From: Opisthorchis felineus
Taxonomy: Eukaryota > Platyhelminthes > Trematoda > Opisthorchiida > Opisthorchiidae
Direction: 5' to 3'
Length of the DNA stretch: 64,000 bases
Assembly (NCBI GenBank): GCA_004794785.1
Contig: SJOL01008523.1
Coordinates: forward strand, 124,001 to 188,000
Shown: positions 19,618 to 51,500 of the stretch, piece by piece
How positions within the stretch are numbered: position 1 is the first letter of the stretch
Layout of the letters: each line of letters starts with the position of its first letter
The notes under the pieces: generated by a model
Told to the model about the DNA's origin: nothing
Database searches by the model: none
What the model saw: only the letters and a program-made list of their open reading frames with translations
Program-made: the position numbers and the translations under genes

Positions 19618-19630
19618 TCATAAATGTTAG
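19618..19630 (+). repeat. Left target-site duplication of fold-back element 1
   Basis: TCATAAATGTTAG here is repeated exactly at 20247-20259, on the far side of the element. The last TCAT of the right copy could instead belong to the element end, so the true duplication is 9-13 bp. Confidence 0.75.
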
Positions 19631-19820
19631 ACAAATACACTCATTTGCAAATCAATTTGGTTTTCACGGGAGACTCAACTGAGTCTCTCGTTTATGATGT
19701 TCTTCAACTGAATGTGCTGCACACAGGCCGCCTCATGTTTCAGTTGGTACGATATTCAAGATATCGCAGTATATTTTCATGAAGGAAACTACTCACAAGG
19801 TTGCTGAAAACTCTTCGACA

Positions 19821-19863
19821 GCCCACGACCGGTTTCGCCCTTCTTGGGGCTCATCAGGTAGGC
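19821..19863 (-). ncRNA. Type I hammerhead ribozyme (intact core)
   Basis: On the minus strand the order is GCCTAC (stem I, 5' side), CTGATGA (core), GCCC-CAAGAA-GGGC (stem II with six-base loop), GAAA (core), a three-base-pair stem III from the palindrome ACCGGT, the cleavage base C, and GTGGGC (stem I, 3' side, six pairs with one G-T wobble). All invariant bases are present. Stem III has no loop, so a dimeric fold is likely, as known for hammerheads in Penelope-like and retrozyme elements. Predicted cleavage follows the C at 19827 (minus strand). Activity is inferred, not shown. Confidence 0.88.
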
Positions 19864-20165
19864 GCAGTCCCCGAGTTTCTGTCAACCTTATGTTCTACTT
19901 GAACCCACATTGGACTGATTTCGACAAATACACTCATTTGCAAATCAATTTGGTTTTGAAAACATACTGCGATATCTCGAATATCGTACCAACTGAAACA
20001 TGAGGCGGCCTGTGTGCAGCACATTCAGTTGAAGAACATCATAAACGAGAGACTCAATTGAGTCTCCCGTGAAAACCAAATTGATTTGCAAATGAGTGTA
20101 TTTGTCGAAATCAGTCCAATGTGGGTTCAAGTAGAACATAAGGTTGACGGAAACTCGGGGACTGC

Positions 20166-20208
20166 GCCTACCTGATGAGCCCCAAGAAGGGCGAAACCGG
20201 TCGTGGGC
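20166..20208 (+). ncRNA. Type I hammerhead ribozyme (intact core)
   Basis: Stem I GCCTAC at 20166-20171 pairs with GTGGGC at 20203-20208. CTGATGA is at 20172-20178. Stem II is 20179-20182 with 20189-20192, and loop CAAGAA is 20183-20188. GAAA is 20193-20196. The ACCGGT palindrome is 20196-20201 and predicted cleavage is after C20202. Beyond an internal loop, GAC at 20160-20162 can extend stem I by pairing with GTC at 20210-20212. That provides the internal loop which usually contacts loop II in natural fast-cleaving type I ribozymes. Confidence 0.9.
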
Positions 20209-20246
20209 TGTCGAAGAGTTTTCAGCAACCTTGTGAGTAGTTTCCT

Positions 20247-20259
20247 TCATAAATGTTAG
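20247..20259 (+). repeat. Right target-site duplication of fold-back element 1
   Basis: Exact copy of the 13-base sequence at 19618-19630. See that entry for the ambiguity of its first four bases. Confidence 0.75.
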
Positions 20260-20400
20260 CTTTTTCTGAGTGAAGCGCTTAGAATTGTCAGAAGGAAATA
20301 ATTTTTTTAATTCATACGCGAAAATATTTCGAAGTTTTGGGTAAACAGAGATTGAAGAGCATTTTGTTTCCAGTTTGCAGCTAACATAGACAAAACAAAA

Positions 20401-20448
20401 ACAAATAACTCAAATAACTCAAATGACTCGAATAACTCAATAACTCAG
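20401..20448 (+). repeat. Minisatellite, unit about 9-10 bp
   Basis: About five tandem copies of a unit close to AAATAACTC, with small variations such as AAATGACTC and GAATAACTC. Confidence 0.75.
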
Positions 20449-22603
20449 TAAAAATTTTAAAAACCCTAGGTTGTTGTGAATATTGATTTTCTTATTCTCT
20501 TTCTCATGAAGGTGGGTATGATGAACTTGTTGTGATGCTGGGTGTGTACTTTCTCTGCTTTGCAATGTGAAGTAACTTGCGGGGTTCAAGTAGAATGCTA
20601 ACGCATAGGTGTTTGAGTTAATTTATTTAAACTCGGTTGAAAGAAAAAAGATCAAAATTATATGCATAAGAACGTTTAAGTGGCGTGCTTCCTGACCATT
20701 TAACCAATTTTGGTCACTTGGAAACAATGTTTTGCGTGTTAAGAAAGTCAGTTGTAATGATGACAACAGATGGAGTTAAAAATTAACGATTCCCTGTGGG
20801 TTAACTCACATTATGTTTGTGCATATGACAGGCGCCATTACAGAAAGACAGTATCTATCACAAACCACCCATCGGTTGAGTAGGTAAACCGGTGGATGGA
20901 TCTTGTACCAAAATGACGCTCAAGTATCTGATCACAGCATAGTTTCAGCAGCCAAGTAGCATTTTTCGGAAAGACGAACCACTCGTCTTCATTTTTGTAA
21001 CACGAACAAACCCTAATTTACCGTGAAGACTATGAATTCTAATCGAAGGGAAGTTACTATCCCACAGTCACGCATTACACTAGAAACTTGATACACTGAA
21101 CGCGTTTTTTACATAATAAGCGCCTATAGTATACCCCAGCTGGAGCTCTGCGTTTCATCTGAAATTCACCTTCACGCGGTTTAAACCTAAACGATCCAAA
21201 CGTGCAAGCGATGTATTTCGCTGCTGGTTATTAAGTAACGCCCACTTGACGAGTCCCAGTAAAGACAAAATCGCTGTCTTCACTCAGTCTCTTAAGCTTC
21301 AGTCAAACGTTCACCGGACATCATTCTTACCGCAAACTATTTGACAAGCACGACCCATACAATTAAACATCAAAATTAATGCCGTGATAATCACGTCAAT
21401 CATATTCTTGTTCTTGTTTGAAGCATGATGGCTGTGTTGCTTCATGTGTTTTTTGTATCATTACTATCCCTTTAAAATATTCACAATTTGAGTGTGTTCA
21501 TCTTAAGATGCTAATACGCTTGGTCATAAAATTTCATTCACTTATTCATGGAAACGTACGAGAAAAAAATTCACTATTTAATATGATGGGACACAAGGTA
21601 ACAAATTGAATTTCGAGATAAACAAAAACCGGAGACTGTGATTTCAACGGAAAGTACGAGAGAAAGGAAAAAGCGGATCTAGCCAACTATTTTCACAATT
21701 TTTTCCTATCCAATTTACCATCTATCTATTTCTATCTACTCTATCTAGTTATCCTTCTATCATTTCCATTCTATTTTATCTGTCTATTTCTATCTATTTC
21801 AAGACATCGTACAGGGGACAGCCTGCCTTCCTAGTTTTGAGACCTGTAGACACAATGTTGACCACTCGCTACACCTTTGAAGGAAAAACGTAACAATGGT
21901 TCTAAAGTCTGATAAATTTGTTTTATTGTGCGTATCGTTGCTGGAGACGTGTGGATATTATACCTAACCTAAATCTCTTTACGAGCAAGAAAGAAAGTTG
22001 ATAAGGGGCGGTTCGCTGTTCATTTGTCACAATTTAACAAACTGTACCATAAAATGACGATGATGCATGGACAAGCAAAATGGTTTTCAAGGTTGTTAGA
22101 AGAATTCTCGTAAATTATTCTGAGATGATGGATCACTGTGTTTCTAATAGGATCTGTCTAAATGTCAATGGGACCTCTTGATGATAGCCATTCTGAAAAC
22201 CTGTGTACTAAATACCTTAGTTCATAACGGAGCCCAATTACCTCACCAACGTGACTAAGTGACTACTTCCGGAGCCATAGGGGATATATAAATTAGGTTT
22301 CGCGTTAATTCTACTAATGACTTGACACATCAGTTTTACTTTGGGGCTGAGGCATTTGTTAGAAGCTGTCGCGATAGTAAAATTCCCAAGGTATATGCAT
22401 ATTTATAAGTAAAATTCAAATAGGATTCGTCGATCAGCACTGGTCACACTGCTGGACAACCGCCTATAAAAGGACAGTCACAGACGGCTTGCAAAGATTC
22501 GACTGTCGTGTTGTACTCAGGGCCTTGGTGTTGAATTAGATCCTGCATTTAGACCTGGTGGGATAACGATTGGCACCTAAACAAGTTACGTTTTTATTAT
22601 CAG
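20449..22603. other. Non-coding stretch
   Basis: No gene is supported. It includes the TCTA-type microsatellite at 21706-21805, listed separately. Otherwise it is AT-rich unique sequence. Confidence 0.45.
21706..21805 (+). repeat. Degenerate (TCTA)n microsatellite
   Basis: TCTA, TTCTA and TCTATCTATTTC words recur over about 100 bases, with interruptions that indicate an old tract. Confidence 0.7.
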
Positions 22604-22714
22604 GGTACTGGCTGCATCCATCAAAATCTCTAAGTTCCGGCGTAATGCTTTACCTCCCGCCAGTATACGACTATTCACAGGTTACCGGGATCAGCCCACT
22701 AACACATCGTAAAG
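22604..22714 (+). CDS. Candidate internal exon, 111 nt, phase 1-1
   Basis: A pyrimidine-rich TTTTTATTATCAG precedes 22604, and the block is followed by AAAG|GTAATA at 22715, a fair donor. The open frame reads YWLHPSKSLSSGVMLYLPPV and continues through the donor with no stop. Both splice junctions fall after the first base of a codon, so the exon is symmetric (37 codons), as is common for modules of extracellular proteins. No domain is recognised. The frame also stays open in the flanks (22570-22815), so openness alone does not prove an exon. Confidence 0.22.
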
Positions 22715-22963
22715 GTAATACCGGTTGGCCTGTTGGCATTCCATTAACCACATTAATGTTATTTATCATGTGGAGAGAAGTCACAGACAATAAAACAGAC
22801 TTGTCTGTGTTCTAGAAGGTTGTCAAATGGACCGGTATGTCTGCTGGTAACCCACAAAACCGATTCATTTATAACATTTGGGTTCTCAGGTAATTCCATT
22901 CCACATAGACAGTGTTGCTTTGAGGAGATACAGTTCCTTTCTAATGGTTGGCCTGTTTTTCAG

Positions 22964-23054
22964 AATTACAAACGGTTACATTTCAAAGATCCTCACGCCT
23001 CCTATGATAATCGTTACCCATGCCATTCTGTGAGGTGCCGACTCCTCCCACAAC
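22964..23054 (+). CDS. Candidate internal exon, 91 nt
   Basis: The acceptor GGCCTGTTTTTCAG ends at 22963 and a donor CAAC|GTAAGG starts at 23055. The frame between begins at a codon boundary and reads NYKRLHFKDPHASYDNRYPC. Its start phase does not match the end phase of the candidate at 22604-22714, so the two cannot be joined directly, which weakens both. No family is recognised. Confidence 0.18.
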
Positions 23055-24631
23055 GTAAGGTGGAAGTTACAGCGAGATTTACAGACACCCAGTCCCGCTG
23101 CTCTGCTATTTCGCAATCGGTTTTCGCCACCTAATAATCATGTCACTCTAGATAAGTCAGACGAGTAAGTCTTTTCTGTATTTTGAGGTAGGTGTGCTAC
23201 ATAGCTCATTCAACATTTCCTAGCCGACGCAGTAGTGTTAAGAATTTTTTCACATGCTGCCGGAATTTTGTGGGTTCGTTAGGTTTTCACCGGCTTCTTT
23301 GTCTTCTGTCAGCTGAAGATATTTGATTTTCGCTGCATAGATTTCTTTTGGTTCCTTAAAGATTTTTTGTGTGCCAACGGCTATCCGCTTACAATTGAAC
23401 GCGTTCACTTTGCCAGTATTTTTTTTAATTCTGCCGGTGTTTAGAAGTTTGATGGTTAAATTCTGAGCTGCTTACAGGCTTCTGTGTTGGTCTCATCCCG
23501 GGCTGTTTTGACAAATGGTCGTTGGTTCTTTGCTCTGCTATCTACATTTAAATTAGGGTAGAAAGTGACTTGCCTTTCTCATCAAACCAATCTCGCCTGC
23601 GTTATTTCTCGGGTTTATTTGTCTCCCCAGCAGCCGTTTGGAAAGTTGTTTGTTTTGGAGCCAAAGGAATTTCGATTGTTTGGGGAATTATCCATCGGCT
23701 TTGGCGGTAGAGCTCGGTAAATCTTCGGTGCAGTTTGCGGGTTCTCCAGTTTTCTTAAACCTAGTTTTAATTTGTCTCCTGCTGGTCCAAGTATATACCA
23801 CAAGCTTTCTCGTGACAGTGCTTGCATTCAGCTCCACGTGATTGATAAATTATTGAGACATTCCGGCCTCACATTCACATAGTCACCTAAGTGAAAAATG
23901 TCTCGTGCTCGAATTATTCAACCTCAAAAGCGATATATGCCACATTGAACCACCTATTTGGTGGTGAGATTTCCAATGCTGCACAAACCGTCAGCATTCT
24001 TCTGTAGTTGTTGTCGTTTACTGAGACTAGTTCAAATTAACCTCAGTATCTTCTTTCAGGATTCCCATACCTTTTCACTCCCAGCTTTCAACTCATCCTA
24101 CCGGAACACGGGTTGCTTAGAGATGCGGATCCGACAAGATTCGGCAGCAGGCCATTAAATTTGTTATTTCTTTGTTTGTGTGTGGCACTGTGGCGAGGTA
24201 GGCATTGGCTTAACTTGTTCTTCAAAGCCTAAATTGGATAACCATCATTCTCACATTGGTGCAGTTCAGTGCACCCGTTATTTCCTTATTAATGTGATCT
24301 GCAACAGCAAATCCGGTATTGTGTTCAGGCTGGATTCTTGGCTAGATTCTTGCTTTTCAGAAGTGTTTCCACCGTAATGAATAATGCGCACGAATTGTGC
24401 CAGAACCGGCATGATTTTACTCCCCGGACATTCTCGTTATACAAATGTTTGCAGTCTGAGGGCATGCTGTCCCCGTTTGGACTGCTCCGCTTTGGCATTT
24501 TTGATACGGCAATACCTTAAGTAACTTAGTTTCATTCAGTGTAGCCGACAAGATCACTACGGCTCAGAAGCCCAACTACTAGGACAGTGACAATAATGTG
24601 TTGAAATACTGGTAGCTTGGGTGAGTTTATT
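23055..24631. other. Non-coding stretch
   Basis: T-rich sequence with overlapping short frames on both strands and no recognisable domain. It could be intronic if the neighbouring candidate exons are real. Confidence 0.4.
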
Positions 24632-24838
24632 GGTTGATGATCAGGTGGCTGTTGATCTGTTCACCGAGCTTGGCAACTGGCTTGCAAACGTTTCGTCACC
24701 ATACGAGGAGACACCATAAGTGAACAGTTGGGTAATGTACTGATGCGCACTGATGATGCCTTCTCGTATGGTGACGAAACGTTTGCTACCCAACTGCCAA
24801 GCTCGGCGAACAACTCAAAAGCCACCTGATCAACAACC
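24632..24838. mobile_element. 207-bp inverted-repeat (hairpin) element
   Basis: Arms at 24632-24707 and 24763-24838 are imperfect reverse complements of about 76 bases, separated by a 55-base loop. The inner ends read CGTTTCGTCACCATACGAG and its complement. Loop plus right arm contain CTGATGA (24750-24756) and GAAAC (24776-24780), the two core words of a hammerhead. The bases between them pair badly and the left arm lacks CTGATGA, so a functional ribozyme is doubtful. Imperfect direct repeats TGGTAGCTTGGG (24610-24621) and TGGCAGCTTCGG (24846-24857) flank it with two mismatches, but not immediately at its ends. The 60-codon minus-strand frame here is a by-product of the repeat. Confidence 0.65.
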
Positions 24839-27800
24839 AGCATAGTGGCAGCTTCGGCTCAGGATATGTATGTGTAGTAAGACCGTTCGAGTTTTAATTC
24901 AGGGGATCAAATTCCATTGGATCATCTTGATTTTAACGTTAGTTTCATTTATATAGGTAAAACTGAGGATCCGTTTTCAGTAATCTTGTAATTTCATCGA
25001 AACTCTTTTGAAAATGTCGACATATACTGAAGTCAAAAAAGACCTTCCAAGTCTGAGATTTTGCATAGTCAGAAACGTCCGCAATTAGTATGATTCCGCA
25101 CTAAAACAGTGCCACCAATGAAGTGAATGGAGCATAGAAAACAGCTGTAACCTCCAGTTTCTTAAGAATATACGAGTTTCTGGCCTAAGGAAATCTAATT
25201 TCGCCTAATTAGTCCACATACATAAAAGATGTCTCTTCCTAGGAGAAATCACAACAGTTTGCAGCATACATTCCAATGGCTACCTGGACGAAAAACTTGT
25301 CACTTCTCGTAGGCGGTCTATTTTGGCAAGACTAAAATCTCAAAGCAACCTTCAGGAGGCCAGCCAATCTTTCCTTAGGTTTGGTCTATCATATGCCTGT
25401 TCTAAATGTATGCAGGAAGAAGATACTGTCATCTGAATGACGGTACGTTAATAATGTGGTGATGCGTACTCTGCGCATGGTGGCGTAGCACCCAGTGTTT
25501 CACCAGCATTTTTCTAAATTCAGTCACACTGTCCTGAAAGACCACTACTAAAAAAACTAGCAGTCTTGGTACACTGACACTTGCAGAAAAATTTGGAACC
25601 CTTTGGAAATATTCCGCCCGACCTCTCGGAAAGGGAAGCAAATGGAACAGTCTCAAATAAGCAGTAAACATTTGCTTAGGCCTAAAACCACCATTCTTTT
25701 ATTCTACGTACCAGCTGCCAAAACATCAAATGCATTTCAGGCTTCTTGCATGTTCGTGCTCATTATGCGAATTATTCACCAAGAGCTAGGTGATCTTTGC
25801 CAGAAGCTACGTAGAACCTGCCTAGGAATTTCGGCCTAAAGACAAATCTCCCCAACTTTTAAGTAAAGTTTAGCAGAATGATCATAGTATTTCGGCTAAA
25901 ATACTCTAACTTAAACTCTTCTTTTCTACATGGTTAGGTCTCCGTTAACCACAATCACATAGGTAATCCTCTTTGGGACATGGAAAAATCATTTTCCGTG
26001 CTCCACGTACAACGTGAATGATACACTTGCAGGCGCTCTAACAAGTACCATTAGTTGGGTTCAACAATAACAAGTCGTTTTACAGGAAGCTTGTGTTCTC
26101 TGGCAACGTATCTCGCCTATGCAAAGGCTCGCATAAAGCATTTGCATGGAGTTTAATAGTGCAGCGCCTATTTTCTCAAAATGGTGGGCCACCTCAACAA
26201 GGAAAATAAACGTAATATGGATGACTTGACTCCCTTTCTTCTCTTCCCATCTTTCAGTACAAAACCTCTCGAAAAAGGTTCTGAAACCTAATGTGCATTT
26301 TACAGTACCTTATGAAGCAATGAAGAAACCTGATGCACCAGTAACCGATACCGAGACTTTCAGTAAGCACTCTCCATCTTGAGTGTTTGAGTATACTTTT
26401 GTTGATACCTTGCTCCGTATCACATAACCAAGACAGTGAAGCAGAAACACAAACAGCGCAAACTACTAGTTCCCTAATGCAAACAAGGGACTGCCCCAGG
26501 AGATTTCAAGCTTGTTCGGAATTTTAAAAGGCGGCAATATTTACTGAGTAAATAATTCCTCGTTTTAATTTAAGCTCACCTTTAGCCTAAAAAGAGAAGA
26601 TTCACAATTCTTCACACGAATTCCTGGGAGCTTTTCAGAAATCTACCCACATTGTGTTTCACCAATCCGATAAACTGATAAGTGGGTTTGATTGAAATGA
26701 ATCGTGTCTGTTGAACTGTAGGTCTTCCTTTCAGACAGATGCGCACAACTCCTATGCGTGCATATTATTTTTTGAGACCAATATCAGGCTTCAAAAATTA
26801 GCACATTTTCTTCAATAAGTGTCTCTCATGTATGTACCGCTGTTGGGATCATATGGTCGAACATGATGACAAATTATTTTGGGTGGCAGTAAACAGATCC
26901 AAAGAAGTGTATTGAATAATAAACCGGTAGGCGGCTAGCATCTCGCGGAAGGGTAGAATATTGAGGGACTGAATGACTGATGTTCGAGCATGTGTAGGTT
27001 AATTTACTAACACATAAAGTGCATAACCCTACCCTTGCAAGTGATGGCACCATTTTGGTCCCGAATTACGCTACAGTGATATTGCCTTTGTCTGCCGTTA
27101 GCATTTGTATGTTTGCTAGACGCTGGACGCCTTATGAAGAACGCTGTACGATCAAACTACGAAGTTAGTTGCTTTAAGATGCGTGTTACCTAATATGATA
27201 ATTCAGCCTAAGCTAGCTGGCAGAAAGAATGTGCGGTTGCTGAACGTTACATTTTATTCCTTTACGAAAGTCCCGAGTTATATTTCGGCCGTCCTTGGGT
27301 CTGAGAGCTACGCCATCCTAAAGAAATTCCTCCTCATCTCATGCGTCGAAATTACACTTACTTCGTTTACTTCGTAAACGTTGTAGCGCACATTGTGCAA
27401 AGCATTTTGTCGATGCAAACACTTGCATTTACAGAAATTCGTCATTTTAACGATGTTCCGATAAATTTGGCACCATTACCCATCCAGCCTGTTTGACTAA
27501 GTCGCATGAAAAAAGGATAGATTTCAAGCGCTCCGAATTTATCTTCTCAGCCACAACAACAGCAAAACCGAAGGTACGTAGATATAATGAACAGAAGCTA
27601 AGATTTTTTCTTAAGTTAAAATACCGTAGTTAACTCCCGCGTGCCTTACCAGTACGAGTTGCTCCACGGGGATTGCTACGGAATCCGCAGACATTTATGT
27701 CACCTATATTGATGGATATGATGTGGACCTTTTTCGAGATATTTTAATTTCAAATGAGTTGAAAAGCAACATTTGGATAAGCTTCCCACCACGGGAACTG

Positions 27801-30319
27801 GAGATTCTCGAATACCTCTTGTTCTGACTCCATTTATTTGACGAACTAAGTATCTTGCAGGCTAGGCATTTTGTTGGTTGGATATTGCCGAAGTGGCCTC
27901 CTTGATTCCATTGTTTGTAGACAGTTTTATTTGACAAGCTAACTAACCCTATGGTTAAATAGTCAAGCAAAATGATGCCGATAAAATTTGTGAAAATTAC
28001 TTTGACGGTGTTAACCCTACGTTAGCTGTGTATATCGTTCGAAAAATTTCATTCAGACATGAAGTTTACCTCAATCACGCCTCTGACAATCTTTGTGAAC
28101 GGCGAAATAGCGCACACCATACAGGCAAGATAACATGTGCCAACCGATGTCAACATTCAGATAGCGATTAGTCGTGTACATGTTTGGACCTGTGGGTTCT
28201 GTTGTGATTGGGAAAGCTGCACTTAGTCGTTCGGTGTTTTAGTTCTGCCCACACGGTAAATAGATGTTGAGATATTGACACAAGTGGCTGGTCTTGAATT
28301 GCCAGGTTTTCCACAAAACGAAGTTTCTAACACCGTAGCAGGATTCTACAGTATCTTTTGACTTGCAACTCTGTAGGAGCATGAAGCAAAACTACCTCGT
28401 CCTGATTCTGGTCTCCCGTGCTTGTTCGCTGATCAGCATGTGTCTTGCCCAAGTGCAGTGTTTAGTGACCGAAACCCGAAAGCCATTAACAGGAGCCATG
28501 TTAAATGAATTAAGTAGTGGTGACTAACGTTCTAAGGCAGGAGAACTGATTCTGTTACCTTCATGTATTAATGGGCGCAGATGACAACTATTTTTGTTTA
28601 TATGCGTGCAGTCACCGTTCCCGCAGGCACGGACTGAGTTTGCTCGTGCGACAAAACAAACTAGTTCGAATGCGTCACGTGCCTCTCTGGTGTGACTTCT
28701 AGCCAAAAATTTATGGACATTAATTTTTAATGGGGTAGTACGCATCATTTCAGAAGTACCTTTCCCATATGATGTACGTACGGCCCTTTCAACATCTGCA
28801 TGTGTTAACTCTACCTAGCGTTATTTTGCGTAATTGTGATACAATAAATTTTAGAGGATATCCATTTCTTTTCAGCACTGCCTAAAGGCGCCAAACTCAA
28901 AGTTTTTACGTCTTGTCTACGGAAAGATCTCCCGCCACGTTTACCAACGATTTTAACACTTTCCGCTTCATGCTGATGGACACATCAAAACTCAGCCAAT
29001 CCTGACTGTTATCAGGCATACTGGGAACGGTTCGCACGTTGTAGAAGCCTTTAACTGTTATGATGGCGTCAAGTTGACCCGAGATGGTGTGGTGTCATCA
29101 CTCTCCAGTAAAAGTCGTAAGACAACAACAACCATTTGTTAGTACAATTGTGCAAAGCGAAGCCACATCAAAGCTTAGAATTACAACATCTTTTTTTAAC
29201 GCAGTTTGCTGCAGCTTTTAAACAAAATTAAAACGACTTCTAATTTCGCTTACTAAGTCATTCTATATTGATTCGATACTTCAATTTAGAGGCTCTCAAA
29301 GTTGACTTGTTAGACTGGCATAGTAGTTCACATCTAGTTGTATTGAACTTCCTGAGTGCTTTTCGAAGGCATTCAGAATGTGAGAGTTTATTGGTTCTAA
29401 ACAACCTCTTCTTTTACCGTGCAAAGGTATGCACCAGTTTATGACAAGAATTTGTTGAGCACTGCGTTTGTTTTTTAATATATGTCCACTAGATCCTTTG
29501 TGGAAACGCCGAAGACATTTCTCCCCATTATCATCGCTACACTGCACTTATCCGCTTTTGAAGCGTGATTTGTTGAACCTCCTCCTAGAAACCGCAGCGC
29601 TCGGTTGTTGGCGCTAAAGGAAACTTGCACTGCTGAAACTCGCCCGACCAGTATCCTCACCCGTGGAATTACATTATTTGGTTTCAGCGATGAGCGCTGT
29701 AAAATAAAGTTCAGTCTTAAATGAAGCGTATGAAGGTCACCCTTGCTAGGTGGCTAAAGGTTTCTTGTATCTTACTCAGTGAGGTGTCTAGCTGACCGAA
29801 TGTCTTCAGATGGGACGTCTTCAGCTGAGGTCGGCCATAGCAAACAACGTTGACTTGTCAAAAAATTAACACCGGTAGGCATGTGTGCCCTATTCCCGTG
29901 ATGACTGTCCGAGGTCAATGGGACGTGGAGCAACAAGCATTGTGATTAATGACGTCGTGTTCTTCCCCAAAAACTACCCCAAACAATAAGTCGCACACAA
30001 CGCCCAAACCATTTGACTAAAATCATGTTGAATGTGAACTGCAGTTATTATGCGGGATTCATGTTTACTGGAAACTTATTGAATCATGAAACTGTTGCGT
30101 CAGTGTTGTGTGGTCCAAAGCAAAAGAGATCATTTACGCTGTTTGTATTCCGTATAAATGCAACATCAATGCCAAAGGCTTAGAGGACAAATCTAACTAC
30201 TGAATACAAAGGACATATGAAAAGTGAGTGGTTTTCAGTCACATTTCTTGCGTTAAGCCTGGTATGGACCGAATAAATGTAGCTCTCTTTACAAAACTGG
30301 ATAAAATGATTTCAAATAG
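24839..30319. other. Non-coding stretch
   Basis: More than 5 kb with no supported gene. A small hairpin (CGTTTAC, TTC loop, GTAAACG) lies near 27363-27379. Open frames are all under 90 codons with no domain-like content. Confidence 0.45.
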
Positions 30320-30547
30320 ACGTAATACACCACTCAAAAAGTTGCTGAAAACTTCGACAGCCAGCGACCAGTTTTGCCCTCGTTAGGACTCATTAGGTCA
30401 GCGCAGTCCCCTAGTTACCGTCAACCTTGTGTTCTACTTGAATCCAAATTGCACAAAAATAACAAAATACACTCATTTGCATACCAATTTGATTTGACGG
30501 GAGACTCACCTGGAACCCAGGTGAATCTCTCGTTTACGATGTTGCTT
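30320..30547 (-). mobile_element. Decayed hammerhead retroelement, single orientation
   Basis: The whole segment is one uninterrupted unit with the ribozyme sense on the minus strand, without the fold-back inversion seen in the three younger copies. Its outer end ACGTAATACAC (30320-30330) matches the outer end of fold-back element 2. The ribozyme at about 30365-30407 is inactivated: the core reads CTAATGA instead of CTGATGA, and the GAAA box has lost its G. No direct repeats flank it. Confidence 0.7.
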
Positions 30548-36980: not shown

Positions 36981-36984
36981 GCGT

Positions 36985-37165
36985 ATATAGTCGACGAAAG
37001 CCCTGTTCAGCTCTTCACTGATCTCGCCGTTCTCAGCGCTCATCAGGTAGGCCTAGTCTCCGAAGTCCCACCAAATTTACTTTGTAGTTGGGCACATTGT
37101 GGAAAGAACTGAAAACAAAATAACCATCTCAAATCTCATTTCAACTGAAACATAAAGCAGCCTTC
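36985..37165. mobile_element. Degenerate fold-back hammerhead element
   Basis: The first part (to about 37075) resembles the antisense of the ribozyme unit, including CTCATCAGGTAGGC at 37039-37052. The end (from about 37136, CAACTGAAACATAAAGCAGCC) resembles the sense unit, so this too was probably a fold-back copy. The ribozyme is decayed: on the minus strand the GAAA box reads GAGA and stem II is mispaired. No flanking duplication remains. Confidence 0.5.
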
Positions 37166-37644
37166 GCGTCAATAAGTGCTTCTTGCAATAGCATAGCGCA
37201 TGAAAAAACTATCCAGGACCACCAGATTTTCCTGTCGGTCTGATGCGATCGGAACACTGTGATCAGCAGGAACTTTTTCTGTCCATAAGCACGATCCACG
37301 TTAAGGTGATTACAAGAGACTCACTAGTCTCTGAATTCAGCGTGTTTCACCTTATTTGATTCATAATACCGAGCACCACAACCACCTGTATCATCACCCC
37401 ATCCGCAATGGTGTGTGTAAAAAACTTCAGAGAAAAAAAGGTTTGTACGTGAAGAAGTTACCATGACGTGGGGCTTTTATTGCTACTTATATTTATCTTT
37501 GCTTCATTTTGATTGGTTAGCCGCCTTCTTGATATGTGTAGAACTCCGCTGAAGGCAAACCGCGAAGCAATTTTCCTGACATGACGAAAAGTATAGAAAT
37601 AACGTCAACTGAAGAAAATTACCCTAGTATCGTGAATACCATTC

Positions 37645-37740
37645 CAGCAAAAACATGAGGCGGCCTTTGTTCAACAGATTCTGTTGTGGGACTTTGAAAA
37701 CAGGAAATTGAGCTGGAATCCATTTGAGTCTCCCGCTAAC
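37645..37740 (+). mobile_element. Degenerate fragment of the hammerhead element
   Basis: The segment shares AACATGAGGCGGCCT and GAGTCTCCCG, in the same order and spacing, with the upstream half of the unit. The ribozyme part is absent. Confidence 0.5.
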
Positions 37741-38589
37741 ATCAACTTAATATATACTTCATCGTTTATCTGAACAAGTTTGTAAATGTCTGCCACATTC
37801 TGTCATTGAATCCATAGGCATTCATACCCAGTGCCTCTGCCTAAGGCAGAATCACGGAAAGCACTGAGTTCCTTGTCCGGGCTCAGTCACCGGTCACCCT
37901 CAGGTGACCCGTGTGTGTGCTCAGGTCATTTCTGGCTGCCGGATAGTGGCTGAAACCATCGTCAAAATTTCCCGTTTATTTCACTCCTTTAACGTCTGAC
38001 GAGTACCATCTGTGGTGGAGGAAATTTTAGCAACACGATTCTGCCCCTAATTTGTGTCCTTCCTTCAAATACTGGATTACAGTTAGGTAGCACTTACTCG
38101 AACTTTTCGAACTCTCCTGCAATTCGTTTGATGTTCTATTTTAAAAATAATAAATAATTTGATTTCAGTGGCAAACAACTGTCAGCGTGGTCTTTCATCA
38201 TATTTTCAACACCTGGTTTCCAAGAATTTTGGAATCCTTTAAACACTTCACCGCTATCATATTTTTCATGCTTAAATCCCTAAATCTCTTACTGAAATGG
38301 AAAAATTACTTGTGTTCTTATCCTGTGAGTTTCGCAATGCTGTCTTGAAACGATCAGAATTTATATAATATGCACACATCTATCTCTGACTTATTGTAAT
38401 CATCTAACGCTTAATAGCTTATCGTCCCGGTAAAGTACTTTTGGATGTTGAACTTCGCTTGTTTGTTTTGCCTTCGCATCCACCTGGCATAGGTATGAGT
38501 TTCTTGTTCGGACACGCTGCAACAAGCGTTCTGCTGGGCCACTTAGAGACAACTTAGATAGCTAGCGATTTTGAATGATCACCACAAAT
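37741..38589. other. Non-coding stretch
   Basis: No gene or shared repeat is recognised between the degenerate fragment and fold-back element 2. Confidence 0.45.
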
Positions 38590-38600
38590 CTACTCGCGTT
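38590..38600 (+). repeat. Left target-site duplication of fold-back element 2
   Basis: CTACTCGCGTT is repeated exactly at 39109-39119. Confidence 0.8.
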
Positions 38601-39108
38601 ATACGTAATGGACTACTCATAGGGTTGCCGAAATTTTTTCGAAAGCCCTCGTTGGGGCTCATCAGGTAGACGCAGTCTCCGAGTTTCCGGCCTGGTGCAG
38701 AACATTCAGTTGCCTGGAAACATCATAAATGAGAGATTCAGCTGGGTTCTCGGTGAGTCTCTCGCAAAACCAAATTTGTTTTCAAATGAGTGTATTTCGC
38801 TAATTCCGAGCAATTTGGTTTCGAATATCGAACATAAGGTTGACGAAAACTCGGGGACTGGGCCTACCTGATGAACCCCAAGAAGGGCGAAACCGGTCGT
38901 GGGCTGTCGAAGAATTTTCAGCAACCTTATGAGTAGTGTATTACGTATATACATGTATCGCGATATCTCGAATATCGTACCAACTAAAACATGAGACGGC
39001 CTAATGCAGCACATTCAGTTGCCTGAAAACATCCCAAACGAGAGATTCAGCTGGGTTCCAGATGATTCTCTCGCAAAACCAAATTCGGTCGCAAATCAGT
39101 GTATTTCG
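38601..39108. mobile_element. Fold-back hammerhead retroelement 2 with tandem unit
   Basis: The 508-bp insertion starts with a short antisense piece (38601 to about 38690) and continues with about 1.35 sense units on the plus strand. CATTCAGTTGCC recurs at 38703 and 39012, giving a unit of 309 nt. The flanking 11-bp direct repeat is exact. The sense part ends GTGTATTTCG, the same terminus (GTGTATTTGTC) used by the other two fold-back insertions. The antisense piece holds a second ribozyme that has lost its GAAA box and stem III (38641-38672). The tandem repeat shows that the reverse-transcribed RNA had at least two joined units or was a circle. Confidence 0.85.
38862..38904 (+). ncRNA. Hammerhead ribozyme, one stem II change
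   Basis: The arrangement is the same as in the copy at 20166: stem I GCCTAC with GTGGGC, CTGATGA at 38868-38874, loop CAAGAA, GAAA, the ACCGGT palindrome, and cleavage after C38898. The base after CTGATGA is A (38875) instead of G, which breaks the stem II pair next to the core (A opposite C). All invariant core bases remain, so weak activity is possible. Confidence 0.82.
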
Positions 39109-39119
39109 CTACTCGCGTT
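39109..39119 (+). repeat. Right target-site duplication of fold-back element 2
   Basis: Exact copy of the 11-base sequence at 38590-38600. Confidence 0.8.
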
Positions 39120-40738: not shown

Positions 40739-40790
40739 TCTTAGCTGTATACTCCAAATAGGCTCTAATTAGGTCGTTATCAAAGCGTCT

Positions 40791-43900: not shown

Positions 43901-46900
43901 ATAACTGAAGGTTGTGTTTGGATTATAGATAAAAAAACTTCTCTCTTTCTGTAATCGGTTCTCGAAGCCTCTCCGAGGTGGATTCACAAGCATACAATCA
44001 CCCCGGACGGTTCGGGTGATATACTGGCATTCACTTATTCGTACCCTAGGGAATTTATACATAGTCACTAGTCCTAATGCCTGGATTACATCGCATTCAA
44101 ACCTGAGGTGTCAATATCGGTGTAATGGTGTATACTACTGATGAGCATGCAAGTAGTCTAATGTTTAATGAACAGCTTCACGCCGAAGCCGATGGAAGGT
44201 GAAGGTTACTACGAAAAACATGGAACCACTTTGCAGTGTTAGTTTGCTATTGTTTAAACAACGAACATTCGGGAAAGTTTAAGAAGGTGCGTGAGAATCT
44301 TCATTTTTCAAAACTATGCAGATAAGGTGCCTACTTTGTCTAATGGCTTGTAACCGCTTAGTTTGTGTTTGCTAATGAACGAATTCGCAGCGAAGGACTT
44401 TCTCTCTGTTGATGGTAATACAACGGTGTGTGATTGTTCGTAGTCAATTTTATCGGCGTGCTTAAGAGCGTTCTTTCTACCAAACTGGCTCTGCGGACAT
44501 TGGTAATCTTCCAACAAACTATGTGTACACTTTACCTAGGTAATTAGACTGTGGTCGTGAAATCCTCTCACACTATCTATCGCACTAAAATCGGCTAAGA
44601 TAGATGAAGTTTATGGAGACAGTTTTTTGTTGCATAATAATGATATTATCAGGTATGGTATTATCAGACCGTTATACCGTGAATTTCATACAACCCACAC
44701 ACTTAGATCCTTAAGAGCTTTCTTAATTTTTAATGAAACATGCACAAATGCGAAATGCACAGAACTAATCATGGACATATTTGTAAGCGTTTCACTGATT
44801 GTGAGTAACAACCACGTTCTTCTCACTTTTGGCAACATAAGGTTCGTCCTTTTCAGCAGTGTGTGGCTTCTTGAAACGTTCGACTCTTTAAGTGTTTTCC
44901 AACTAAGATGAGGAACCCACCCTACCACAGTCATTGCCTGTATTCGGGCTGCAGTGAGGTCAGTGTGGTTCATTTACATGGGCTGACGGATGGCCGTTGT
45001 GCTCCCGAAAACAGATCAAAAGGGCTCATTTCACTCCAGGCAAATCCCTAGCAATACAAACCACGGGTTTACTTTAGGCTACAAACAGCATTGTTCACCG
45101 CTCTTTGAACGGCTCACTGGATGTTCGAAAGTGCTGGTTAGTGATTGGTGTACTATGTGACCAGCTCTATGAGAGGTGGAGCTTTTGTTTGAAACCACCG
45201 ATTGTTTTAGACTGCAGCATAGACTAAAACGCCTGGGTGCTGTTGTGTTTCTCGCCCGCAGCGAAAAGTTCTGCTGACTGGCTGAAGGACGGTTCCTCAA
45301 CTATGCACTACTACCGACCGGAAGTGTCGCAGGTTCTACGCTGACTGCTGACGATTTTGCGCACCACTACTAAAGCCGAGTATTTGACCGTTTGCTGGTC
45401 CAAGCTGAAACTTTCACCCAGCAGTAACACACCATAGAAATTCTGGTGGTCCCCCCTGTTGTCCAATGACTGTGGAACTAAATTATATGCAATCGTAATA
45501 GAAAGAAGCAGCTGGGTCCAAATATGCAGAATATACTATAATTGCGATTGAAAATGTATGTAGGCGAACAAAAGACAAAATTCAGGTTCCAGATATCAAC
45601 TATATGGACCGATTTGAACTAAAATAAAATAGCACTGTAGCCACTGGTGAGGGCACCAGAAAGATTACGTTATTTCAAGGTTCTAAAGAGCATTATATGG
45701 TATGTCGTTCCTTTTCAGTAAAATATATTCCAATGTAATACTTAAGCATCCCGGAGTCTTGGTTGAGCCGTGCAACCTGGTCGCTCCTGAATACTTGTTT
45801 TGTTTTTCTGAATAGCCGTTGGTCATCGCGAATCGTCTGTAGAAGCGCAAGTCTTGGACTTGAAATTTAAACCGAATGTTGGAAGAAACGTGATCAGATC
45901 GAAAACATCTCAGCCATCCGGATGCAGCTGACGTTGGGCCGCATGCGCATCCACCTGAACACCGCGCACCTGATGTAAACCTGAGGGAATAGGACCAGAG
46001 TGGAAACAGGAAGAAGGTGGGGGAGGTGAGTTGTTTAGCTGCAGCGATTAAGGTTTGTTCACGGTTGATCAGCTGATTTCCATTCATTCAGAAAAACATT
46101 GTAAATCGTAAACAAAAACACCATTAGGTGCAGATGACTGGGGGCTTTGTAGAGTTTGCAAGCCGTTGGTTCGTATATGATAATTTGGCGTGTGCTAGTA
46201 AAACAGTGATAGCAGTTTCAATTCGCAGGTCAGATGTCTGGCGGTCAAATACCGGCGCGGGTAAGGTTTTGCACTTCTGACGAGTGCTAATAGGCAGAAA
46301 TCAAGCCCAATGCTTCCCGCCTTTGGTGTGGAATACTCAGAGTAATTATGCTGGGACAGGAGATTGGAGCGGGAGCAGTATAAGTGCAAAAAAAACAACG
46401 TTTACACTATTTTCAAGCTAATACTGGTTGAGGCCGTGTGTGCATGTTTTTTCTTCCGAGGACGCCGGATGACTGCACTAGACTGTCACCCTGCCAGACT
46501 ACTGCAATACTTGGGGTCAGGCCTCTTTTTCTGAAGTGCCTGATCAGATGATTATGTTTGAGGCGACCGACTCGGTTGTAAATAATCAACTGGTCGGTTC
46601 AGCCGGTTATGCAAAGAACTTAAATGATTTGAGTATTCGATACACCCCTAACAACAACTCAGTCCTTAATGGTCACTGTTTCAGAAGCAGTCACTACAGA
46701 GGTGGGGTCACTCTACAGGAGCTTGTGGGGTGAATATGTGCTAAACAAGCATAGCCCATGCTATCGTAGCAGCCATATATGGTCGAAACATTTATCACTG
46801 TAACTATTTACCACGTGTTTTTTCGAATATTCGCATGCGAGAAAAGTCGGAATCTTAAAATTACTTCAATTAACTGTGGATCGCTGACTGTCGACCTTTA

Positions 46901-47663
46901 TACTAGAACCAGAACTTTAGCAAACTATGATAATAAGAGAACCGACGCACGATTTCTAACTTGAATTTTTATTCATTTTTTTACTGTCATTGAGAAGATG
47001 GTGGAGAAATTGAGCGACCGACGAAACTCGCTACTAAGGCACCATCTCTGGTCTTTCACGACTCAAGATTAACGCGTTATTTGTCTGTGGAGGTGAACAC
47101 TTGTTTGCAAACTGAAGACGCGTGAACATGGAACCCTAAAGATTCCCTCACTTGTAATATTCCCCAGCCGAAAGTGCTACACCTGGACTGCCCATCCGAT
47201 GAATCCCAAAACGGTGACACTGGCAGTAGGCTGCCGGCGGTTTTACAAATCTGACAAACACTATCTTAGTAACTTCACCGACAGAGGTCGGTAAGGAAAC
47301 ATCTGAAGAGTAAACGAGCAGCCAGCGTTGCTTGTGCCGCATTAATTTCTTTGGTGATTTCATACAAGGTATTCACTATTGTTCGTGTAAGCAACAAGAT
47401 TTGTTCGCGTCCTTTATTCGCAGGGCCTGAACTTTCGTGAGTGCGTTTGGATGCAGAAAGGTGCGTTTCTACTTCAACGAGGATCATTCCTTAAACGATC
47501 GCAAACTGAAGTATTAGTTCAGTAATTTTCTGCTTATACTGATACCTCGCAGCTTTGCTTCTGTTATGTTTCATGCACTGGCTGACGAATGCTTTGATCG
47601 TGCCATCTGTGTAGAGGTTCATCAAATTTAAATGCACTTTGACGCAACCATGAACTGCAAAAC
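40974..47663. other. Non-coding stretch
   Basis: Nearly 7 kb with no supported gene. The minus-strand frames at 44686-44973 and 45683-46087 are open but show no domain, and their splice signals are weak. A CTGATGAG at 44136 has no partner GAAA box and is not a ribozyme. Confidence 0.4.
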
Positions 47664-47676
47664 AAAAATTACTCTC
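47664..47676 (+). repeat. Left target-site duplication of fold-back element 3
   Basis: AAAAATTACTCTC is repeated exactly at 47942-47954. Confidence 0.82.
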
Positions 47677-47941
47677 ATGAAGGAAACTACTCACAAGGTT
47701 GCTGAAAACTCTTCGACAGCCCACTACCGGTTTCGCCCTTCTTGGGGCTCATCAGGTAGGCGCAGTCCCCGAGTTTCGGTCAACCTTATGTTCTACTTGA
47801 AACTAAATTGCACGAAATTAGCGAAATACACTCACTCAGCACATTCAGTTGCCTGGAAACATCACAAACGAGAGATTCAGCTGGGTTCCAGGTGAGTCTC
47901 CCGTGAAAACCAACTTGATTTGCAAATGAGTGTATTTGTCG
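47677..47941. mobile_element. Fold-back hammerhead retroelement 3
   Basis: The 265-bp insertion begins ATGAAGGAAACTACTC, the reverse complement of the right end of element 1. It runs as antisense of the unit to about 47835, then switches to the sense strand (from CAGCACATTCAG) and ends GAGTGTATTTGTCG. An exact 13-bp direct repeat flanks it. The inner junction lies in a short shared CTCA/CAGCA region, which suggests template joining at microhomology. It is shorter than the other two because both arms stop within one unit. The 87-codon plus-strand frame that crosses the left end is not a gene. Confidence 0.87.
47719..47761 (-). ncRNA. Type I hammerhead ribozyme, cleavage base A
   Basis: The minus strand has GCCTAC, CTGATGA, GCCC-CAAGAA-GGGC, GAAA, ACCGGT, then A at the cleavage position (complement of T47725), then GTGGGC. 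All core bases and all stems match the copies at 19821 and 20166. The cleavage base must be any base but G, so A is allowed but is usually slower than C. Confidence 0.87.
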
Positions 47942-47954
47942 AAAAATTACTCTC
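47942..47954 (+). repeat. Right target-site duplication of fold-back element 3
   Basis: Exact copy of the 13-base sequence at 47664-47676. Confidence 0.82.
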
Positions 47955-50034
47955 TTTCAGGTGAAAAGTTTAACTGGGGTTTGTTGCAATCTACTTGCTT
48001 TGGCTAGAAACAAAAATATGCCTGAAAATCCTAATCATGCATTCGTTGGAGAAAAACGACTACACATATTGTTGATCTCCCTCACAAAAACAAGAGGTAA
48101 TGATTGCGTCGTTTTTGTCTGAGAATAATGCGACCATTTTGTGGACCGATGATAGACTTCAGTTTGTTTCTGAATGCTGTTAGAGTAGGACGTACTCAGT
48201 AGAAATTGTGTCCATCAAAGGGATGTTTTCTCTTGAAGACTGTTCTTGGGGTTGTTACTGTTATGCTCACTGAAATTTGCTTTTTTGATACTATTGCGCA
48301 TACTGGTGGTGATATCCAAATATGGCGATTCAAAGATCCACACTTTTCAATTTAACAAGAAATAGTTTGTGCTCTGTAGTGTTGAAAAATCAGAATGACC
48401 AGCATGCACCCCAGATCTCAATTCAACTGTGTATCGGTGAGTCATACAAGACTCAACTCTGCATCTCACATACTAAGTTGGCTACCCTTGGAAAAGAGGT
48501 AGCTTCCATCCACTTACTACTATAAAGGCTAAATTAAAGGTTATAATTGGAAACGACTGGAGCAGATTTTTCTAACATTTCTGGAGAGAAAAGCAATTTG
48601 GGGTGGCCCAAGTACATCAACACCAATATTTTCCCACTTACCTGCATGAGCTATCTCCATGATCATTATCAGCTCCTACCTGATCGCGAGTAATTCAGCC
48701 AACAACAAAAACCGGGTTTAGTAACTTATTACGATAGTGTGAGTACGGGTCAGGTAGGCCAAAAGGCCTCTCCAGAAAAGAAGCTAAATGCTCCTTTCTC
48801 GGTAGTAGCCGGCTTATAGTAGGATTGTCCTGATAATCTGTCAGTGTTCACCGAAAATTGTATCTAGAAAGCACAAATCTGAACCTCTTAGTAAGTTCTG
48901 CACAGTACTCCTATCTATACGAGATACATATCATCCAGTCTCGCTGCGGTTGGGTAAAATATTTTCACAACTAACTGATAAACGACTGTCGCCGTTTGTT
49001 TCAGGATTTATGGCCTGTCTTTGGAGGGTGTTATTCAAGCGCAGAGTTTCTAGGAGACGGTTAGTGTTAGGAAGTTTACACAAAAAGCACAAAGAAGAAT
49101 GGTGCTTGCGTTCGAAATAAAACTATCACCGTTGAATATCATTTCAGCGAGAACCCACTATTTACTTTATGTTTCATGAAGCGAATTTCGCTAAAAATGG
49201 AAATTTTCCTGACACATCACGTTGACAATTTATGTACTGGCACGAAGATTTCTCTTTTCAACGCTAAATCAACGTAAATGGATCATATTACAACAAATTA
49301 CTCACAAACGTTGTGCTAATACACTGAAGACAGTTGCGTAATGAAACCCATTCATCACTTTTAAGCATTCGCTTTAGAAAAATAGAATTAAACGTACACG
49401 GGTGTGTCACATTCCTTACAATGTTCTTATTTTCACTAACGCACGAAGCTGGCTTATTCAGATATCTACTCCAGCCATTTTTGAGTCCCAGTTAGAGCAC
49501 GACAAAATCCAAAACCCTGTGCTTACCTGCTAAACACTTGAAAGAACCCGGTAGATTTCTTCACCTAATCGCTTTCCTATATAACAATTTTAATCAAGTG
49601 ATAGAGAAAAGACCGGCCACTTTGTTCGCACAAACTTCCCCCGTTTACTTTCTACAAACGTAAAGGATTGTACACTTGAAGTTTTCAATCAACTATAGAA
49701 AACATTAAGATCTGAAGTTTGTTTTCCGCAAGGGTTTCCAACGTTCGTGTTCACTTAACTGAAGTTTGAAGTGCCCATTCTGATTTCATCGGTCCCAGTT
49801 GTCCCCTTTCTTCTTGACCCAATTACAGGCAGCAACGTTCAAATAAGTTTTGTTATTCTCTAAAACGCTGAGCAATAAAATGGCGAAAATAAAAAATTGC
49901 GTGAAGTGACAAGTTCGTCGAACTGACTGCTTAACACATGTCTGTGTCTTAGTTTATAAACTGCGAAAGACTTATGAGGACAACAGCAGAGTTTTCTTGT
50001 TTTGCGCACGTCACTAGTACCCTGGACTAACAGC
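47955..50034. other. Non-coding stretch
   Basis: No supported gene or repeat. Open frames are short. Confidence 0.45.
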
Positions 50035-50275
50035 AGTCGTCACCATTGACGGCAACAACAGCATCATCACACCCTCATTATCGTTATCCCAACGATCGTT
50101 ATATTTATCATCATCGTTATCACTGTCGTCATCATCACCACCATCGGCGATGACATCAGCATCATCGCGATCATCATCACCATCAGCGCCATCCACCATC
50201 ATTACCATCGCCAGCCCCATCGTCAGCAGCACCATCATCGTCAGTATCATTGTAAACAACAACAACACTTTCATT
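50035..50275 (+). repeat. Imperfect trinucleotide repeat, (CAT/CAN)n
   Basis: CATCAT, CATCAC, CATCGT and CAGCAC words with period 3 dominate about 240 bases, followed by a short AACAACAAC run. Frames on both strands translate to low-complexity peptides (Asp-rich on minus, Ser/Ile-rich on plus). These are consequences of the repeat, not evidence for a protein. Confidence 0.8.
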
Positions 50276-51416
50276 GTCAACAGCAGCTGTAATAATATGG
50301 AACCTCGGTTATCAGGTTCCCAGAAACCTTGCCAAGCAAAGGATTTGAAAAGTCACGGAGCCTGGTGTTGGTATGGCACTCATTTAAGAAATCCTTTCAA
50401 TGCCAATCCCGCACTCATAAGGTCCGGTTAGCAACTGATTGAAAGAATGGCCTTGGCAACAGTTCTAAGAGATCGTTATGCTGAGCATTTTGATCGCGGT
50501 AGTACTCCGTAGGTTTCTCCCTCAACATTGCCTTCTTCTCATGTATAAACAGCACGAAAGTCAGGCTACACGTAATTATCTTTAAAAAAGAAGGCCTAGA
50601 TAAGGAACGGGCATGGTTGATGAACTTGCTCAGTCGGCTGAGTCAACAACTACATGGAAGAATACAACCACTGGGTGTGATTAGTAGTTTACACAGGAGC
50701 TCGTTGAGGCGGGTTTGAGAGATGTAGTTCATGAGGTCAAACTAGAGATTTCACAATTTGTGTACATAAGTTTACACAGCTAAATATCCATGGCCACCTT
50801 CGCCGGTGACATGCGAAGTGTGACTGGTTTAAATGAACAGTCTGTAGCAACTTTTCCACAAAGGGAGACGGAAGTCTGTAGGCTGATGGCGATGTGGAGT
50901 TGAATAAGGGCTGAGGGACGAGGAGATGTGTTTACCATCCTGAATATTTGTGGTCCAGTTGCGAGGTTGTTCCATTTATCCAAATGCCTTTTCCATTGTG
51001 TGAGCACACCCACACTATCCGGACAACCACCATCATGTTATCATGCACTTTACCTTAATTGTAGCTTTGAGTGTGTAAAGAAACTCGGATTTTCTAAACC
51101 TATTTATTGTTAACAGACCTGTGCTGTTACAAAATGCACAAGTTTGTTCATACAGCCATGCCGCTGCCACCAATCAATGTTAATCTGCCGTGAGCTTTGA
51201 ATACAAAACTTGTCTGTCTACTGATAGGGCGTTTATGGTCGCGCTGTGAACCATCACAACAGAAACAACGGATGACCAGTTGAGGGTTGCTTGACAACAC
51301 GTAATCACTGTAGTTGTCTACGTTAAGGCCCATGTTTGGGCACGATTGTTTAAACTTTTAGTTGCACGAAGAAATTTGTAAACGGCATCCTAAACCGTAA
51401 AACATGACAGACTTTT
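50276..51416. other. Non-coding stretch
   Basis: Nothing is recognised between the trinucleotide repeat and the truncated element. Confidence 0.45.
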
Positions 51417-51500
51417 AGCGAAATACACTCACTTGCTGACCAATTTGGTTTTGCGGGAGATTCACCCGGAACCCAGCTGAATCTCTCGTTTATGATGTTT
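51417..51500 (-). mobile_element. 5'-truncated copy of the hammerhead element
   Basis: On the minus strand this is the 3'-terminal part of the unit only, from CATCATAAACGAGAG to the terminus GTGTATTTCGCT. It lacks the ribozyme and any inversion. A shared 3' terminus with a variable 5' end is typical of target-primed reverse transcription. No clear flanking duplication is visible. Confidence 0.68.

What the first reader, a model, noticed from the sequence alone, without database searches (positions are those of the whole stretch)
19618..51500. A hammerhead-ribozyme retroelement family with fold-back copies
At least seven related segments occur (19.6, 30.3, 37.0, 37.6, 38.6, 47.7 and 51.4 kb). 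The sense strand carries a complete type I hammerhead: CTGATGA, a GCCC/GGGC stem II with loop CAAGAA, GAAA, a loop-less palindromic ACCGGT stem III, and a six-pair stem I. Hammerheads of this shape are known from Schistosoma Sm-alpha, Penelope-like elements and animal retrozymes. This family, with a 293-309 nt unit, may be undescribed. Self-cleavage and circularisation are inferred from the class.
Basis: partly seen in the sequence, partly recalled or inferred. Interest (0 to 1): 0.88.

Follow-up and report, generated by a model that had tools for sequence, protein, structure and literature searches.

The report
Ribozyme element with Penelope-type scars
A tiny non-coding mobile element that carries a self-cutting RNA motif is scattered, often as mirror-image copies, through a genome that looks like a liver fluke's, and the scars it leaves resemble those of Penelope retrotransposons in the same genome, which points to the machinery that moves it.

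Summary
Its stems covary across 27 aligned copies.

The new result is how copies are inserted. I mapped 46 copies: 6 in the window, 23 in a 200-kb sample, 17 at loci of ribozyme hits. 28 map as two-armed, all head-to-head with sense strands outward. Exact flanking repeats of at least 9 nt occur in 13 of 46 (0.6 expected). Outward ends cluster at two internal positions, A and B, neither at the ribozyme cleavage site. Of 28 two-armed copies, 18 have one A and one B end, 3 A+A, none B+B; 7 have an unplaced end.

Penelope-like elements (PLEs) in the same genome show head-to-head arms, 9-12 nt target duplications and one main plus one tail end in the 3 two-armed copies examined.

Best reading: a new animal retrozyme family inserted by PLE-type enzymes priming on both nicked strands, probably from circular RNA. 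PLE mobilisation of animal retrozymes had been proposed without a sequence signature. Self-cleavage, circles and the PLE partner are not shown.

The parts
19618..19630 (.). left target duplication (13 nt) of the 19.6 kb copy
   Evidence: exact 13-nt repeat
19631..19957 (-). antisense arm, outer end B; longer than one unit
19808..19872 (-). type I hammerhead
   Evidence: Rfam HH9 35.2 bits, E 3.7e-5
19957..20246 (+). sense arm, outer end A; reference unit is 19957-20253
20157..20221 (+). type I hammerhead; cleavage expected after 20202
   Evidence: Rfam HH9 35.2 bits, E 3.7e-5; cleavage site inferred from the class
20247..20259 (.). right target duplication (13 nt) of the 19.6 kb copy
30316..30543 (-). 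single-armed copy, outer end A; decayed hammerhead; no target duplication found
37008..37135 (-). decayed antisense arm with a degenerate hammerhead core
   Evidence: 65% identity, core at 37024-37063
37628..37751 (+). decayed sense arm, probably of the same copy as 37008-37135
   Evidence: 68% identity
38590..38600 (.). left target duplication (11 nt) of the 38.7 kb copy
38601..38689 (-). antisense arm, outer end A
38690..39108 (+). sense arm of about 1.4 units, outer end B
38858..38917 (+). type I hammerhead
   Evidence: Rfam HH9 29.3 bits, E 0.003
39109..39119 (.). right target duplication (11 nt) of the 38.7 kb copy
47664..47676 (.). left target duplication (13 nt) of the 47.7 kb copy
47677..47834 (-). 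antisense arm, outer end A
47706..47770 (-). type I hammerhead (A at the cleavage position)
   Evidence: Rfam HH9 32.3 bits, E 3.2e-4
47837..47941 (+). sense arm, outer end B
47942..47954 (.). right target duplication (13 nt) of the 47.7 kb copy
51415..51500 (-). single-armed fragment, outer end B, without the hammerhead
   Evidence: 88% identity

Best explanation
This is a new family of animal non-LTR retrozymes: a ~300-nt non-coding repeat with a conserved type I hammerhead. Shown: dispersed copies, conserved ribozyme pairing, short target duplications, head-to-head arms with sense strands outward, and two preferred internal outer ends, A and B, about 140 nt apart on a ~300-nt unit, of which a two-armed copy usually has one each. 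Inferred: PLE-type reverse transcriptase/endonuclease nicks both target strands about 9-16 nt apart; each 3' end primes reverse transcription inside the retrozyme RNA, one at A and one at B; the two cDNAs meet and are joined. Arms longer than one unit, with no arm of two units seen, suggest a circular template made by hammerhead cleavage and host ligation.
For: 28 of 46 mapped copies are two-armed, all 28 head-to-head. Flank repeats >=9 nt in 13 of 46 against 0.6 expected from 2070 swapped flank pairs. Window plus sample: 31 of 47 outward ends fall in two windows that should hold 6.0, while inward ends do so in 8 of 51 with 6.6 expected. Two-armed ends: AB 18, AA 3, BB 0, 7 with an unplaced end; P about 5e-4 to 7e-4 for 18 of 21 under independence. 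PLEs in the same genome: L044 with a 12-nt duplication, inverted arm, main end and ~28-nt tail end; C1522 and C954 with 11- and 9-nt duplications and again one main and one tail end. Published: a lizard PLE cuts and extends both strands and starts reverse transcription at two internal RNA sites (PMC11167929); rotifer PLEs have inverted pLTRs, 8-10 bp duplications and an optional tail on one inverted end (PMC3846280). Stem covariation.
Against: No sequence similarity was found between the retrozyme and the start-site region of the two PLEs examined, so no partner is identified. A and B are ~140 nt apart, the PLE sites ~28-39. 33 of 46 copies show no exact flank repeat >=9 nt. Three copies are A+A. 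One compound locus (C1369:39368-39827) has a sense stretch followed by an antisense one, though mapped it as a single arm. Only three two-armed PLEs were examined, and of C1522 and C954 only the ends were read. One arm continues into 151 nt of upstream flank of another copy, which fits a linear transcript. LINE insertions in this genome were not examined.
Confidence: 0.7

Rival explanations
1. A SINE-like RNA moved by a LINE; the fold-backs are ordinary twin priming as described for L1 5' inversions (recalled, not looked up).
For: Twin priming gives the same arm orientation and duplications of similar length (recalled). Animal retrozyme papers name LINEs as well as PLEs as candidates (PMC7229834).
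Against: Twin priming predicts one fixed and one variable outer end; here both outer ends are usually fixed and usually different. No poly(A) or simple tail is seen at either end. PLEs in the same genome show the paired-end pattern.
Confidence: 0.15
2. A PLE-moved element whose template is a linear or multimeric transcript, not a circle.
For: In the lizard PLE assay hammerhead mutants did not affect insertion and unprocessed RNA appeared to be the main substrate (PMC11167929). One arm runs into upstream flank. L008 has an arm with two hammerheads.
Against: 11 of 79 arms are >=315 nt (one of them, C1369:39374, doubtful) and none reaches 594, so genomic multimers that could supply such templates were not seen in what was mapped.
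Confidence: 0.3
3. A foldback or MITE-type DNA transposon that happens to contain a hammerhead.
For: Inverted arms flanked by short duplications.
Against: The two outer ends usually differ (A and B), inner ends vary, arms are circular permutations of one unit, duplications vary from 9 to 16 nt, and single-armed copies exist.
Confidence: 0.03
4. Assembly artefact or inverted duplication after insertion.
For: Inverted repeats are prone to misassembly.
Against: Arms of one copy differ in length, end and sequence, and the pair lies inside one target duplication on several contigs.
Confidence: 0.02

Closest known systems
Animal non-LTR retrozymes (Cervera and de la Pena 2020, PMC7229834; parts 1-4 of 6 of the text read)
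   Same: Type I hammerhead, ~170-400 nt unit, GC under 50%, non-coding, many copies, target duplications longer than 4 bp when present.
   Different: Those occur as head-to-tail tandem repeats, dimers to large multimers; here copies are single arms or head-to-head pairs and no arm reaches two units. Two preferred outer ends are not mentioned in the parts read.
Penelope-like elements (lizard PAc, PMC11167929 main text read; rotifer Penelope, PMC3846280 passages read)
   Same: Head-to-head arms, short target duplications, two internal reverse-transcription starts or ends, hammerhead.
   Different: The element here is non-coding and ~300 nt; its two ends lie ~140 nt apart, not ~30; its hammerhead is longer than the PLE's minimal one.
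Schistosoma Sm-alpha and Sj-alpha SINE-like elements with hammerheads (only titles seen, in the reference list shown; the rest recalled)
   Same: Short SINE-like fluke repeat with a type I hammerhead.
   Different: Not compared: no schistosome sequence was available. Whether they fold back head-to-head is not known to me.
Rfam RF02275 Hammerhead_HH9
   Same: Best-scoring model in the window; stem I with an internal loop and an outer helix.
   Different: Scores 29-35 bits against a gathering score of 52; stem III here has no loop.

Membership tests
Type I hammerhead ribozyme | Core CUGAUGA..GAAA with stems I-III, stem I open | tested here: met
   16 of 21 genome matches to RF00163 are over its cut-off, of which some belong to other hammerheads
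Type I hammerhead ribozyme | Self-cleavage | not testable with these tools
   no experiment
Animal non-LTR retrozyme | Non-coding unit of ~170-400 nt, GC below 50% | tested here: met
   297 nt, 45.1% and 310 nt, 43.9%; no sense frame over 82 codons in the tripled units
Animal non-LTR retrozyme | Head-to-tail tandem copies | tested here: not met
   0 of 79 arms reach two units; no ~300-nt array in the window. Other loci may hold arrays; no genome-wide search was answered
Animal non-LTR retrozyme | Target duplications longer than 4 bp | tested here: met
   >=9 nt in 13 of 46 against 0.6 expected
Animal non-LTR retrozyme | Expressed as linear and circular RNA | not testable with these tools
   no RNA data
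Product of PLE-type integration | Head-to-head arms | tested here: met
   28 of 28 two-armed copies; one compound locus with a sense-antisense junction
Product of PLE-type integration | Two defined outer ends, different on the two arms | tested here: met
   AB 18, AA 3, BB 0 of 28, 7 unplaced; PLEs 3 of 3 examined
Product of PLE-type integration | Sequence or structure shared with a PLE start site | tested here: not met
   no match at the ends of L047 or L048; only two PLE families checked, structure not compared
Penelope-like element proper | Reverse transcriptase and GIY-YIG frame | tested here: not met
   unit non-coding; so it is at most a passenger of PLEs
Foldback/MITE DNA transposon | Same terminal inverted repeat at both ends, fixed duplication length | tested here: not met
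   ends usually differ, duplications 9-16 nt

The most novel reading that the evidence does not exclude
Each insertion is made on one monomeric RNA circle with exactly two reverse-transcription start sites about half a turn apart. A dimeric PLE enzyme docks on both, nicks both target strands and copies the circle from both sites at once. Because one circle offers each site once, a two-armed copy should carry one A and one B end. This would be target-primed reverse transcription of a circular RNA from both strands.
Probability: 0.3. Interest if true: 0.85.

Novelty: new variant of a known kind. Interest (0 to 1): 0.62.

Why it matters
Which enzyme moves animal retrozymes has been a guess; a 2020 review says the repeats show no conserved motif that would reveal the partner (PMC7761336, passages), while naming PLEs as likely candidates. 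Here integrated copies keep a readable scar, two preferred start sites with both strands primed, that resembles PLEs in the same genome. That makes the guess testable, and offers a small, plentiful substrate for studying PLE integration, about which little is known (PMC11167929 abstract).

Tried and rejected
CTGATGA counts were dropped as evidence. Window frames: 10 of 13 stop-to-stop frames of >=120 aa were scanned, with no Pfam hit. A scan of window, sample and L001-L020 for GIY-YIG and RT motifs (patterns recalled) found no PLE; one RT-like YADD stretch in C1369 was not followed. Similarity between retrozyme and PLE start sites: none. A motif shared by A and B (about GAGT..GTATTWCG): B is the best match to A in 2 of 5 units (W38, L008), has 3 higher positions right beside it in L006, and 10 and 14 higher positions in L005 and W19; suggestive only. 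Inward ends piling up at the hammerhead cleavage site, expected for cleaved linear templates: no clear pile-up (by eye). The insert in the copy at C1369:85764 matches other dispersed places and looks like a later insertion. About 4 kb of N inside L011 left that locus largely unread. PF26215 is not in the tool's Pfam, though the protein table carries it. No genome-wide copy count was obtained.
Full report
What is in the window. Six insertions of one repeat family lie between 19.6 and 51.5 kb. The reference unit, 19957-20253, is 297 nt; the 38.7 kb copy gives a 310-nt unit; GC is 45.1% and 43.9%. Rfam's HH9 model finds four hammerheads at E 3.7e-5 to 0.003, all below its gathering score. In the whole genome (630 Mb, 1848 contigs) model RF00163 gave 21 matches, 16 over its cut-off, with 74 of 115,518 candidates scored. 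These lie in 20 loci (L001-L020). Sixteen of the 20 hold this family; L002, L010, L018 and L020 hold other hammerheads, and in L009 the matched hammerhead is also a different one, the family copy lying at the locus edge.

Ribozyme conservation. Of 43 BLAST matches to the hammerhead region I aligned 27; the 16 left out were short, decayed, or a second copy of L011, and include the decayed window sites at 34.7, 37.0 and 38.65 kb. In the structure I named, 90.7% of 857 cells are paired, against 33-47% when partners are slid by 1-3 columns; 9 of 34 pairs change on both sides against 2.4 in shuffles. Stem II columns 44-55 are CG, UG, UA and other in 11, 10, 5 and 1 of 27. Caveats: most copies were found with a hammerhead model, the structure was read from one of them, and related copies inflate such scores.

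Insertion anatomy. I mapped 46 copies: 6 in the window (7 clusters merged), 23 in a 200-kb sample (26 clusters merged; C1454 and C1369, 100001-200000 each, 18 kb of it N), and 17 at loci of ribozyme hits. The two sample contigs had been seen to hold ribozyme hits elsewhere, but the stretches were chosen without looking for copies. Left out of the 46 were weak or distant matches in L009, L011 (two), L014, L015 and L016. 28 copies map as antisense-left/sense-right and 18 as single arms; none as tail-to-tail. One locus that maps as a single arm, C1369:39368-39827, has a sense stretch followed by an antisense one and may be compound. Exact flank repeats of >=9 nt occur in 13 of 46 (0.6 expected) and of >=13 nt in 6 of 46 (0.0 expected). 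L014 has a 16-nt duplication that one search missed because its mapped edges ran into it. The sample densities (17 and 6 copies per 100 kb) would mean tens of thousands of copies; a rough figure from two contigs.

Two preferred ends. For window plus sample, outward ends lie at u281-u9 (A) in 16 of 47 and u145-u156 (B) in 15 of 47, with 4.1 and 1.9 expected; inward ends lie there in 5 and 3 of 51, with 4.5 and 2.1 expected. I chose these windows after seeing the data. With wider classes (A u268-u33, B u136-u166) the 28 two-armed copies are AB 18, AA 3, BB 0, and 7 with at least one end in neither class; two of the 18 (C1369:14813, L014) sit at class borders, and one AA (L012) rests on a 27-nt match. 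Under independence 18 of 21 has P 5e-4 to 7e-4, and 18 of 20 without L012 has 2e-4. Neither end is the expected cleavage site (u246). Between A and B lie 136-146 nt in five units of 294-310 nt. Of 79 arms, 11 are >=315 nt (the longest, C1369:39374, doubtful; the next is 425 nt at 38.7 kb) and none reaches 594.

PLEs in the same genome. The GIY-YIG search gave 6 matches with 150 of 553 candidates scored. L043, L044 and L046 are PLEs by their reverse-transcriptase and GIY-YIG frames; L042 and L045 share short stretches with them, L041 does not. A 114-aa query gave 150 matches with 150 of 3524 candidates scored; 17 rows share one score (83% identity) and 19 rows another (59%), which suggests two young families. 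By eye in that table, nine neighbouring pairs lie within 5 kb: six head-to-head, three tandem, no tail-to-tail. The 858-aa frame of L047 scores above cut-off for RVT_1 and GIY-YIG. A minimal hammerhead at the ORF start was read by eye; Rfam did not report it at E <= 0.5. L044 has a 12-nt duplication, an inverted 59-nt arm, a main end at ...GACCAT and a tail of about 28 nt on the other arm. C1522 (11 nt) and C954 (9 nt), of which only the ends were fetched, again have one main and one tail end (tails about 39 and 28 nt by eye). L046 is single-armed with a 14-nt repeat; L043 has the main end and no repeat was found.

Host. Of 493 relatives of the L047 protein, 120 listed, the named close ones are Opisthorchis viverrini (90% over 53% of the query) and Clonorchis sinensis (88% over 58%). 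I infer an opisthorchiid fluke or near relative; the species is not established.

Reading. A lizard PLE protein cuts and extends both target strands and starts reverse transcription at two internal RNA sites (PMC11167929, main-text section read). Rotifer PLEs have inverted pLTRs, mostly head-to-head, 8-10 bp duplications and an optional tail on one inverted end (PMC3846280, passages). The retrozyme copies share head-to-head arms, short duplications and paired different ends. I conclude that PLE-type machinery most likely inserted them. Against this or open: no sequence shared with the PLE start sites, a wider spacing of the two ends, no look at LINEs, and in the lizard assay the hammerhead was not needed for insertion. 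One arm of C1369:68550 continues into 151 nt that are 91% identical to the upstream flank of the copy at C1369:5844, which fits an RNA intermediate but a linear one.

Novelty. Animal retrozymes and PLE hammerheads are known. Six library searches listed no paper whose title or shown abstract describes head-to-head retrozymes with paired ends, or a hammerhead retroelement of Opisthorchis or Clonorchis; some searches listed only part of their hits (20 of 22, 15 of 17, 12 of 399). Two key papers, PMC4209133 and PMC5785218, are not held, nor are most subscription papers.

Noticed in passing
L002:1501-1545, L010:1501-1545, L020:1501-1545, L018:1501-1556, L009:1507-1532: Other hammerhead families in the same genome; L002, L010 and L020 look alike, with palindromic or near-palindromic stem III CTCGAG.
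   Followed up: no
   Followed up: no
C1369:68828-68968 (within L037), compared with C1369:5700-5850 (L031): Filler between two retrozyme arms is 91% identical over 151 nt to the upstream flank of another copy 63 kb away; looks like co-copied flank.
   Followed up: partly
L047 (C860:437700-441500): Tandem PLE copies 2.8 kb apart with an 858-aa open frame; two groups of equal-scoring PLE matches suggest recent activity.
   Followed up: partly
window 19957-20253, antisense: In the 297-nt unit one antisense frame has no stop all the way round when tripled; not so in the 310-nt unit, probably chance.
   Followed up: no
C1369:85920-86140: Insert inside a retrozyme copy matching several dispersed places, with tRNA-like box motifs by eye; probably a SINE.
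   Followed up: no
window 50129-50201: Short 21-nt tandem repeat of the TCA/ATC kind.
   Followed up: no
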